Made by a program: the position numbers and the translations under genes. From NCBI RefSeq assembly GCF_037975245.1, contig NC_092575.1, positions 25,315,841 to 25,379,840 of the forward strand: a stretch of DNA of 64,000 nt, read 5' to 3'. The stretch comes from Apostichopus japonicus (taxonomy: Eukaryota > Echinodermata > Holothuroidea > Aspidochirotida > Stichopodidae). Position 1 is the first letter of the stretch; every line of letters begins with the position of its first letter. Below, one piece after another: positions 5,428-24,262 of the stretch. Under the pieces are notes generated by a model, which worked only from the letters and a program-made list of their open reading frames with translations, was not told where the DNA came from and made no database searches.

Positions 5428-8400
5428 TTAATAATAATAGTAACGGTAGACATCGTGGCAACAGCAGCCAGTCTGCACGCGTATGAGTGTCCAGCGATAG
5501 TCGCAACCTTGTCTCACGTATGCCCATTGATATCCGTATTGAGTCACACACTTGCCCTTGCATCTGCAAGGAGTATCTCTGTGGATTAAAAATAAGGTAG
5601 AAATTATTCAAGTTCCAATGTTATGCCACGGTGTCAATAAATCATGGAACTAACAATGATCAGTTCTATGTCGACTTAAGTTTTAAACTCATTTTCATGT
5701 CACCAAAATGACGTCATAGATGATGTAGGTTCTACACACTTTTGGATAGCTTTGTTTTATATCTCATAATTAAGAAAAGAATAAGGTCAACCGCCCCAAA
5801 ACTAGTAACCACGTATAGCACTGTCTAGTGATACTTTTTAAGAAAAAGTCGCCCAGGAAGAACCTGGGCACCAAAAACCAAACTACCAAACGATTGATCC
5901 GCTCTCAGCCCCAGACCTCTTGCATCGGGACTGTGACTGTGTGGTCATCGTCGGGTGTGCATCACCATTCCCCTCGAAAAGGAACAGATACTACACATGA
6001 TCTTAGCCAAAAGGCCGAGTACTGTCTAGTGATATACGTAAACATAATATTAAATATATGACTTTATTGTGACCTTAATACTGATTTCACTAATACGAGC
6101 CGATATGCATTCGTTGCATGGAATAAGGTATTGTAGTACACTAATACCAGCTGCCTATATATGCATTCATTGCATGGAATAATCGATTGTAGTACATTAC
6201 TCTGTATCATACATTGTATATACATTGTACTGCCGTCAGCAGCATATATAGACATTACTAGCTGGTCTCACAATGACGAGAACCCTATATATGTTTACAT
6301 TTGATTTATTAAAGTAGATGCAATGTTACACTCTTCACAATGAAAAGGAAGAGACATGTTATGGATCAATACCATCATTTTTTTAATTTATATTATTTTT
6401 GATTTTGTGTAAATATCCATACAAATTTTACTCATGAGGGTATGGGGAGGGGAGGGGAGGGGGATAGGGAATGAGAGCAACCACGTATACTACTTCTGGG
6501 GGGCTTTAGCGCCCCCCTCCCCAAGGAAAAAAATCAGGGGATAATCCCCCTAACTGGTTTTTAACGACACAAACATCCTAGTGTATAGTAAATATAACAT
6601 GCATATGCGGTATAACCTAAATAGTCGAAAATTATTAACAGTTGCAAAACATAGCACCATTTTGCATCTAATCACGTTCACGTTTACCAAAATTTGTTAG
6701 ACTCCTCTCTAGTCTTACCATCTGATACCCCTTCCCCCACCTCTTCCAGTACCAAACAAAGGTTGTTCTACCCCTGTGGAGGGATCAACCATTCCCCACG
6801 GTTACGGAGGAAATAATCTATTTTCCCTTAATATTTCAGTTTTGCTCACCTGCTGCAATATGCTTCGTAGAACCTTCTTGGATATATTACCCGCACGTAC
6901 TGGCCCCTGATAGTCTGTGCCCACGTGATTTCTGTGAATTGGCGATACACGTTGCATTGGTTTCTGGAGTAATAATACCACAGATGGGCTCTGGAGAAAA
7001 ACAAACGATTTTAAGTTTATTAAACAATGAAGAGTGATTACGTCATTCATAAATCTATCGTTATACTCGATATACACCGCAAATTCTTTAAAAAAAATTA
7101 ACTAAAATAAACTGTGTCACACAATAACCGAGGATTTTTGTAGGTGTGAGTGTCGCTTTAACCACATAGTAACTTGACGTTATCAATTTAACAAACAAAA
7201 TTAAAGGAAAAAGTGCATTTGCTTTTTAAAAAGTTGCGATATTTCGGGTAAAATCTACGATTATTCGCCCCCCCCCCCGCCCCAAAGATAATCGGCCCTA
7301 TATACAAACTGGTAGATTCATATATTTCATGTATTCCTTTGGTCAATAGATAACATATATAACAACTTTGATATTAAAATTTGATATTTGAAACTTGCAC
7401 GTCATACATCAGAAAAGTTTTCAAATCATCTTTACCGAAGGGGTATACCAACTTGTTAAAGGGAAGGTACGAGTGAACATTTTATTTGATTGATGAAAAA
7501 GGACCACATTTTACGCATTCTGCAGTGAAATTTCCATTCAATTCCTTTAAGTATGTATACGAAATAAGAACAATTGAAGTTAACGCGTTACGTACCAAAC
7601 GTAAACTTGACACAAGGTGTGATGTCTTAAATGCAAACTGAAAACAAAAGAAGCCTTTTATAATTTCTTACGTCCAATTGTCTACTTCATAATTAAACAG
7701 AATCTCAATATGAATAGATCAAATTCATTTAGTAAATTGTTAACTTTCCATTCGCTTACAAGTGAACATGAAAAAGCTTTTACAATCAAGAGGTCGAACA
7801 ATAAAGTGCAAGTTCAAGCAACAATATCATCACAACTGTTATTTTGCTTTGCTTCAAATTCACTTATTTTTCAATATTGTGACAATTGCAATTAGCATTA
7901 GCATCTCGAAGCGCAATGTAGAAATTGTATGTCAATCTTTAACCAGGATGTTAAGATTATGTTCCTCTTCCAGTGATAGCAATATTTCTAAAGTAAGTTA
8001 AGTTTTCAAGATATTAACCTTAAACAAAATATTTTTTAAAACTCTGGAATATTCCTTTAAGGCCAACTTGGTGATGACGCCAGCTTCTTGGTCCGGGCGT
8101 CAATGTTAATGTTAGACCATTGTTTTTATAAAATCGTTAAGAAAAAAACTTAACCCAAACCCTAACTTCATATTAAAAAACAGAGCACATTTAGAGGACA
8201 TTCACCACATTTTGTCCTCTTTTTTGACAAGTATTGTAAGAAAGCGAATTATGGTCCTTTAAAGTGTATTGTTTTCCTATTGTGTTATGTGGAGGTATCC
8301 GACCTTAACTGACCTGAAAGATCTGCTTTATTGGCTCCAATTATAGCACGCTACAGCTAGAAGTTTCTTGAGATTACGTAATCGACCTGCCATGGTCGTA

Positions 8401-24200: not shown

Positions 24201-24262
24201 TCTAACTCATAGCACAAACTGTTTGCGTGTGTGCGTGTGGAAAACGAGGTTTTACTCACCAT
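18285..24262 (-). CDS. Gene B: paralogous secreted cystine-knot ligand precursor
   Basis: Coding exons are 24262-24260 (only the ATG), 22380-22283, 21297-21208, 19101-19006 and 18438-18285, giving 146 aa. The first junction is phase 0 and the others phase 2, as in gene A. Residues 2-18 ([17 protein letters not shown]) form the hydrophobic core of a signal peptide. A short acidic propeptide ends at the RxxR site RLPR (57-60). The mature part (61-146) has 11 cysteines: 95, 96, 101, 104, 108, 116, 125, 138-140 and 146. Sequons are NST at 66 and NCT at 107. The last two exons align with gene [11 protein letters not shown] with [18 protein letters not shown] with CRCKGKC, and [11 protein letters not shown] with the gene A end. 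The exon before the Cys cluster is 45 nt shorter than in gene A and lacks its first cysteine. Identity is low outside the motifs, so divergence is old or fast. Confidence 0.82.
20196..20520 (+). mobile_element. MITE-like element with GGCGTAGGAA ends
   Basis: It starts ggcgtaggaa and ends ttcctacgcc, exact inverted ends. The body (tgcatttccaggtggcctcag, ctcatttggaaatgaaaaag) recurs inverted at 25203-25475. It has G- and C-runs and no coding frame. It lies in intron 3 of gene B. Confidence 0.7.
21827..21935 (-). ncRNA. tRNA-like head followed by a hammerhead ribozyme motif
   Basis: On the minus strand a tRNA-like part (A-box tggtcgagtgg, B-box ggttcgattcc) runs into CTGATGA, then GTCC-CAAAA-GGAC (stem II), then GAA, then GCCGGTC. 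The flanks CC(U)AC(C)UUCGC and GUGAAGUGG pair with two bulges as stem I. This is the layout of a type I hammerhead with very short stem III, as in Penelope-like elements and retrozymes. The core A after GAA is G here, and stem III (CCGG) has no loop, so cleavage would need a dimer or may be lost. Confidence 0.6.
22002..22213. repeat. (TA)n microsatellite, about 212 bp
   Basis: Uninterrupted TA dinucleotides in intron 2 of gene B. Confidence 0.97.
22481..22692 (+). repeat. Dispersed repeat, copy 2
   Basis: See 15061-15275. This copy is in intron 2 of gene B, and its 3' side runs into about 200 bp of ATT/ATTAAG simple sequence. Confidence 0.65.

What the first reader, a model, noticed from the sequence alone, without database searches (positions are those of the whole stretch)
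5428..24262. A tandem pair of divergent cystine-knot ligand genes
Two genes share signal peptide, propeptide, RxxR cleavage site, phase-2 introns and a Cys-rich C-terminus with the same GCCCH end, yet differ almost everywhere else. Gene A has RQKR and 9 mature cysteines. Gene B has RLPR and 11, and loses the first knot cysteine. The motif order suits PTTH/Trunk, Spatzle or neurotrophin relatives, which are poorly known outside protostomes and vertebrates. They may be an undescribed ligand family.
Basis: partly seen in the sequence, partly recalled or inferred. Interest (0 to 1): 0.87.

Follow-up and report, generated by a model that had tools for sequence, protein, structure and literature searches.

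The report
Compact neurotrophin-like ligand genes
Two neighbouring genes in an echinoderm genome look like secreted, disulphide-knotted signalling proteins distantly related to nerve growth factor, and they belong to a small gene family of their own that has a distinctive cysteine pattern.

Summary
Two split genes on the minus strand (A 12496-5428, B 24262-18285) have clean splice sites, three phase-2 introns each, a hydrophobic leader, a propeptide, an RxxR site and a Cys-rich mature domain ending GCCCH. A has 9 mature cysteines. B has 13, not 11, and keeps the first knot cysteine. They are not a lone pair: the genome holds three more members, C, D and E; C and E look 5'-truncated. In A, B and D the six knot cysteines align with neurotrophins. 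A five-member profile's PDB hits are 18 of 19 neurotrophins, but weak (best E 0.031); Pfam NGF and Spaetzle scores stay below cut-offs. Profile comparison favours neurotrophin over PTTH and Drosophila Spaetzle. The genome separately holds a canonical neurotrophin and three NT2/Spaetzle-like loci, so this may be a third neurotrophin-superfamily group: short first loop, split mature domain, CCC where relatives have CxC or CCxC. The likely role is a secreted growth-factor ligand; receptor and expression are untested, and the one structure model was poor. Whether other echinoderms have it could not be tested.

The parts
5428..5578 (-). Gene A last coding exon: knot Cys III-VI, GCCCH, stop
   Evidence: homologous exons in B, C, D, E
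6850..6990 (-). Gene A exon with the start of the mature domain, knot Cys I and II; phase-2 introns on both sides
9255..9410 (-). Gene A propeptide exon; the RQKR site completes across the next junction
11766..11902 (-). Gene A leader (signal peptide-like) exon
   Evidence: gene C keeps only its last 31 bases
12482..12496 (-). Possible 5-codon first coding exon of gene A (MHFKS), joined in phase 0; alternative start is MCVLG in the next exon
   Evidence: inferred from the splice site and the exon plan of B and D
13206..13296 (-). Promoter-side or first-exon block of A shared with B
   Evidence: score 49 against null maximum 37 of 300; not seen in D
18285..18438 (-). Gene B last coding exon: knot Cys III-VI, GCCCH, stop
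19006..19137 (-). Gene B exon with mature Cys 5, knot Cys I (C14) and II (C47); C48 is made at its 3' junction
21208..21297 (-). Gene B propeptide exon with RLPR
22283..22380 (-). Gene B leader (signal peptide-like) exon; D has a homologous exon
   Evidence: (E 8.2e-5)
24260..24262 (-). Gene B start codon, last codon of its exon (ATG|gtgagt); D has a similar exon
   Evidence: score 45 against null maximum 37 of 100
26363..26451 (-). Promoter-side or first-exon block of B shared with A

Best explanation
A and B are members of a five-gene family of secreted growth-factor-like ligands in the neurotrophin superfamily, separate from the canonical neurotrophin and the NT2/Spaetzle-like genes of the same genome. 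Shown from sequence: leader, propeptide, RxxR (A and B), six ordered knot cysteines, extra cysteines, shared exon plan. Inferred: the precursor enters the secretory pathway; a furin-type protease frees a domain of 96-98 residues (A, B); Cys I-IV, II-V and III-VI form the knot; the domain dimerises, perhaps covalently, since A and B have an odd number of cysteines; the dimer activates a cell-surface receptor. Which receptor (Trk, p75-like or Toll-like) is unknown.
For: Six knot Cys plus one Phe are the only columns invariant across A, B, D, the canonical neurotrophin (L022) and two NT2-like proteins (L028, L023) (C and E were not in that alignment). PDB profile search: 18 of 19 hits are neurotrophins (one of them labelled ovulation-inducing factor, which I count as NGF from recall and its alignment), best E 0.031; A alone: 5 of 5 hits of that kind, E 1.2-1.7; B alone: 1 hit, neurotrophin-4, E 2.2. 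Pfam: NGF in 2 of 5 members (best 0.0015) and Spaetzle in 3 of 5 (best 0.01); 0 of 10 Cys-preserving shuffles hit either, one hit a DUF at 0.068. hhalign against human NGF (typed from recall) beats 150 of 150 shuffles, against L022 149 of 150; against a profile of L022, L028, L023 E 1.1e-4, probability 57%. Cys IV-V spacing of 27 in A, C, D, E equals that of NGF (B has 29). Family members found.
Against: All NGF and Spaetzle scores are below curated cut-offs (best 19.1 against 27 bits). Member A has no Pfam hit, and cobW is hit by 2 of 5 members, more weakly (best 0.055). hhalign against the two NT2-like proteins is unremarkable (23 and 8 of 150 shuffles as good). The single-sequence model is poor (pLDDT 50.7, pTM 0.36). 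dN/dS of the recent pairs is not significantly below 1 (A-C 1.40, interval 0.58-4.76; D-E 0.91, 0.33-3.58). Gene E lacks the aligned Cys III; C, D and E lack RxxR at the domain boundary; C keeps only the last 31 bases of the leader exon and E shows none in the 4.8 kb fetched upstream. No transcript evidence.
Confidence: 0.77

Rival explanations
1. They are divergent members of the known ambulacrarian NT2/Spaetzle-like group, not a third group.
For: Multi-exon precursors and an extra Cys beside knot Cys V, as reported for Sp-NT2 (PMC2772990, passages); I-II spacing of 32 equals NT2b; Pfam Spaetzle weak hits in 3 of 5; without Spaetzle in the tree, joining the family with NT2 is not rejected (p-AU 0.151).
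Against: CCC instead of CCxC in 5 of 5; two NT2-like domains and a partial third sit elsewhere in the genome. In trees the two NT2 proteins form their own side (99/99 without Spaetzle; with it, NT2 plus Spaetzle 98/97 and joining family and NT2 has p-AU 0.012), though branches are long and the nearest relative of the family is not resolved.
Confidence: 0.15
2. PTTH/Trunk-type ligands acting through a Torso-like receptor.
For: Same general motif order; trunk reported in hemichordates and amphioxus (PMC6660194, passages).
Against: hhalign against Bombyx PTTH aligns 4 columns only, with 25 of 150 shuffles as good; its Cys spacing and CxC start differ from the family; no PTTH among 19 PDB hits. 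Trunk itself was not compared.
Confidence: 0.04
3. Cystine-rich secreted proteins without ligand function, or decaying duplicates.
For: C and E look 5'-truncated, C, D and E lack RxxR, E lacks a knot Cys; dN/dS near 1 in the recent pairs.
Against: A and B keep open frames, splice sites, cleavage sites and the cysteine frame although blastn at E 0.001 finds no DNA match between them.
Confidence: 0.12

Closest known systems
Canonical neurotrophins (NGF, BDNF, NT-3, NT-4; L022 in this genome)
   Same: Order of six knot Cys, Cys IV-V spacing (27 in NGF, A, C, D, E), W..I.V/I.T/S.C segment before Cys V, leader-propeptide-basic site-mature layout (A, B)
   Different: First loop 32 residues against 42; 2-7 extra Cys; CCC against CxC; mature domain split by a phase-2 intron, whereas L022 lies in one open frame
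Ambulacrarian NT2 (Sp-NT2) and NT2/Spaetzle-like loci at C1:290-305 kb
   Same: Multi-exon precursor (Sp-NT2, from the paper), short first loop (32-33), extra Cys beside Cys V
   Different: CCC instead of CCxC; 5-6 residues between Cys III and IV in A, B, C, D instead of 10-14; extra Cys between III-IV and IV-V
Arthropod Spaetzle (Daphnia Spz7 in particular)
   Same: Extra Cys between III-IV and between IV-V as described for Spz7 (PMC2772990, passages)
   Different: Pfam Spaetzle score below cut-off; no profile alignment to Drosophila Spaetzle beyond 4 columns; Spz7 sequences were not compared
PTTH/Trunk
   Same: Secreted cystine-knot dimer ligands (recalled); PTTH ends in CxC
   Different: No detectable profile similarity to PTTH; different Cys spacing

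Membership tests
Neurotrophin superfamily (NT + Spaetzle) | Six knot cysteines in order with one residue between V and VI | tested here: met
   A, B, D against L022, L028, L023; C by spacing. E lacks the aligned Cys III
Neurotrophin superfamily (NT + Spaetzle) | Curated profile score (Pfam NGF or Spaetzle, 27 bits) | tested here: not met
   Best 19.1 bits; the NT2-like proteins L028 and L023 also stay below 27 (same call)
Neurotrophin superfamily (NT + Spaetzle) | Paired beta-hairpins held by a cystine knot | tested here: inconclusive
   Model of A has strands 22-26, 31-35, 57-70, 73-87 but pLDDT 50.7; fold search switched off
Neurotrophin superfamily (NT + Spaetzle) | Leader, propeptide and basic cleavage site | tested here: met
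   A and B by inspection, no signal-peptide program run. Not met in full by C, D, E: no RxxR; C and E without a whole leader exon
Canonical neurotrophin | Mature domain in one coding exon and only six Cys in it | tested here: not met
   Phase-2 intron between Cys II and III; 8-13 Cys
NT2/Spaetzle-like | CCxC at knot Cys V-VI | tested here: not met
   CCC in 5 of 5
NT2/Spaetzle-like | Groups with NT2 in a tree | tested here: inconclusive
   p-AU 0.012 with Spaetzle, 0.151 without; long branches
PTTH/Trunk | Sequence similarity over the knot domain | tested here: not met
   Bombyx PTTH only
Any of these | Receptor used | not testable with these tools
   One search with Pfam LRRCT_2 (a Trk-linked domain by recall) gave one match, below cut-off

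The most novel reading that the evidence does not exclude
A third, previously undescribed group of neurotrophin-superfamily ligands in echinoderms: compact knots, nine cysteines in A, C and D, with a CCC core and a split mature domain, expanded by local duplication, and possibly using a receptor other than Trk.
Probability: 0.5. Interest if true: 0.58.

Novelty: new variant of a known kind. Interest (0 to 1): 0.45.

Why it matters
How neurotrophins and Spaetzle diverged is open, and PMC2772990 (2009, passages) reported no Spaetzle in deuterostomes. A third group in an echinoderm that also carries a canonical neurotrophin and NT2-like genes gives a new branch for that question and new candidate signals for nerve growth, regeneration or immunity.

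Tried and rejected
PTTH and direct Drosophila Spaetzle orthology: no profile similarity beyond shuffles. Weak extra member at C8:21742960 (E 2.16): exon 3-like only, no exon 4 seen by eye among the frames listed from the 9.9 kb fetched; dropped. C19:19517184 exon ending CVCEC (Pfam NGF E 6.4e-4): left unassigned. My first view that the A and B 5' regions match was tested by blastn (no hit at E 0.001) and then by local alignment (score above plain base shuffles); the same block was not found upstream of D (B against D 24, null maximum 30; A against D 25). Faster amino-acid change in A-C exon 3 (ratio 2.8, interval 0.9-9.5): not significant. Species name: a genome-size text search found nothing; the mitochondrial code fits table 9, so echinoderm is supported, class not shown. 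First tree with PTTH and Spaetzle: branch lengths of 10 for both, family support 63/74 on the best tree (one side of a branch in 98% of 200 bootstrap trees); rebuilt without PTTH, with and without Spaetzle and without E.

Full report
Observation. Splicing the minus strand gives A, 195 codons or 200 with an optional MHFKS exon (stop included), and B, 158 residues. The junctions are GT/AG; the three internal introns of each gene are phase 2 and the first coding intron is phase 0. A's mature domain has 96 residues and 9 Cys, B's 98 residues and 13 Cys.

Family. Searching the window's own 671.6 Mb assembly with mature A, mature B and the D precursor finds five genes: A and B; C with hits at C15:25237248-25238607; D with hits at C15:24830738-24835699; E with hits at C23:6690038-6693590. 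A to D lie within about 0.51 Mb on one contig. A and C, and D and E, are recent copies: A-C aligned blocks are 86-92% identical except a 113-base block at 76% and a 36-base block at 97%, and the three long D-E blocks are 90-91% identical, while A and B have no plus-strand blastn match at E 0.001. C, D and E lack an RxxR site at the domain boundary, and E has Phe where Cys III should be. C keeps only the last 31 bases of A's leader exon (score 42 against a shuffled maximum of 26 in 50), and D's leader exon has no match above shuffles in the E locus, of which 4.8 kb lies upstream of the propeptide exon (22 against 31). C and E may therefore be truncated copies; A and B are the most complete members, with D next.

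Shared upstream sequence. A local alignment shows a block at 13206-13296 (A) and 26363-26451 (B) scoring 49, against a maximum of 37 in 300 plain base shuffles. B's ATG exon matches D's (45 against 37 in 100 shuffles). The A/B block itself was not found upstream of D. This fits tandem duplication of A and B with retained promoter-side sequence.

What it is. No member passes a Pfam cut-off for NGF or Spaetzle. Below it, NGF is hit by 2 of 5 members, Spaetzle by 3 of 5, and cobW, more weakly, by 2 of 5. None of 10 shuffles that keep Cys in place hits NGF or Spaetzle; one hits DUF4548 at 0.068. A profile of the five against PDB gives 19 hits, 18 of them neurotrophins (one labelled ovulation-inducing factor) and one D7r4, best E 0.031. 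hhalign scores of the family profile: human NGF (typed from recall) 32.1 (0 of 150 shuffles as high), canonical NT of this genome 23.7 (1 of 150), NT2b 15.1 (8), NT2a 14.2 (23), PTTH 12.7 (25), Drosophila Spaetzle 12.4 (32). The six knot Cys align across A, B, D, L022, L028 and L023.

Relatives in the same genome. One canonical neurotrophin (C1:6485324, Pfam NGF E 1.8e-24; 3.3e-27 as a protein) lies in one open frame. A cluster at C1:290365, 295480 and 305328 ends PSCCAC, PSCCSC and QSCCSC, which resembles the description of Sp-NT2 in PMC2772990 (passages); orthology was not tested, and at C1:290365 only the second half of the domain was seen. The family here differs from both: CCC, a short III-IV loop, extra Cys, and an intron inside the mature domain. 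In trees the family is one side of a branch (85/100 without Spaetzle and 92/99 with it; in 82% and 94% of 200 bootstrap trees), the two NT2 proteins fall apart from it (99/99 without Spaetzle), but branches are long, the nearest relative is unresolved, and without Spaetzle a family plus NT2 grouping is not rejected (p-AU 0.151; with Spaetzle 0.012).

Structure. A alone gave a poor model (pLDDT 50.7) with strands at 22-26, 31-35, 57-70 and 73-87, as two hairpins would have; this is suggestive at most.

Mechanism. Secretion, cleavage at RxxR, knot formation, dimerisation and receptor activation are inferred from homology. The receptor is unknown; one search with a domain linked to Trk by recall was uninformative.

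Taxon. Mitochondrial COX1 reads with AAA as Asn at conserved sites and AGA as Ser, which is code table 9, used by echinoderms and flatworms; class and species are not shown.

Literature. Eight searches: seven on the subject and one on genome size. Passages seen from PMC6660194, PMC2772990, PMC6586643, PMC6018497 and PMC13228809; other papers only as listings. None of the passages seen describes this family. Most subscription papers and NCBI annotations are not in the library.

Noticed in passing
window 21830-21871 (-): Type I hammerhead ribozyme (Rfam RF00163, 34.9 bits) in an intron of gene B, beside a tRNA-like tail (tail judged by eye), probably a mobile element.
   Followed up: partly
window 5939-6025 (-): U2 snRNA-like fragment in the last intron of gene A, below Rfam's gathering score (37.7 against 46 bits), likely a pseudogene.
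   Followed up: partly
window 44007-44441 and 48930-49505 (-): Two ZU5-domain open frames (Pfam E 3.7e-12 and 1.3e-9) near a coiled-coil-like frame at 55638-56261.
   Followed up: no
L028, L029, L023 (C1:290-305 kb): Cluster of three NT2/Spaetzle-like loci ending CCxC.
   Followed up: partly
L035 (C19:19517184-19517333, -): A lone exon ending FEWRRIAITCVCEC with a weak Pfam NGF match (E 6.4e-4), unassigned.
   Followed up: no
window about 4850-5090 and 21990-22210: Long GAT repeat downstream of gene A and TA repeat inside an intron of gene B.
   Followed up: no
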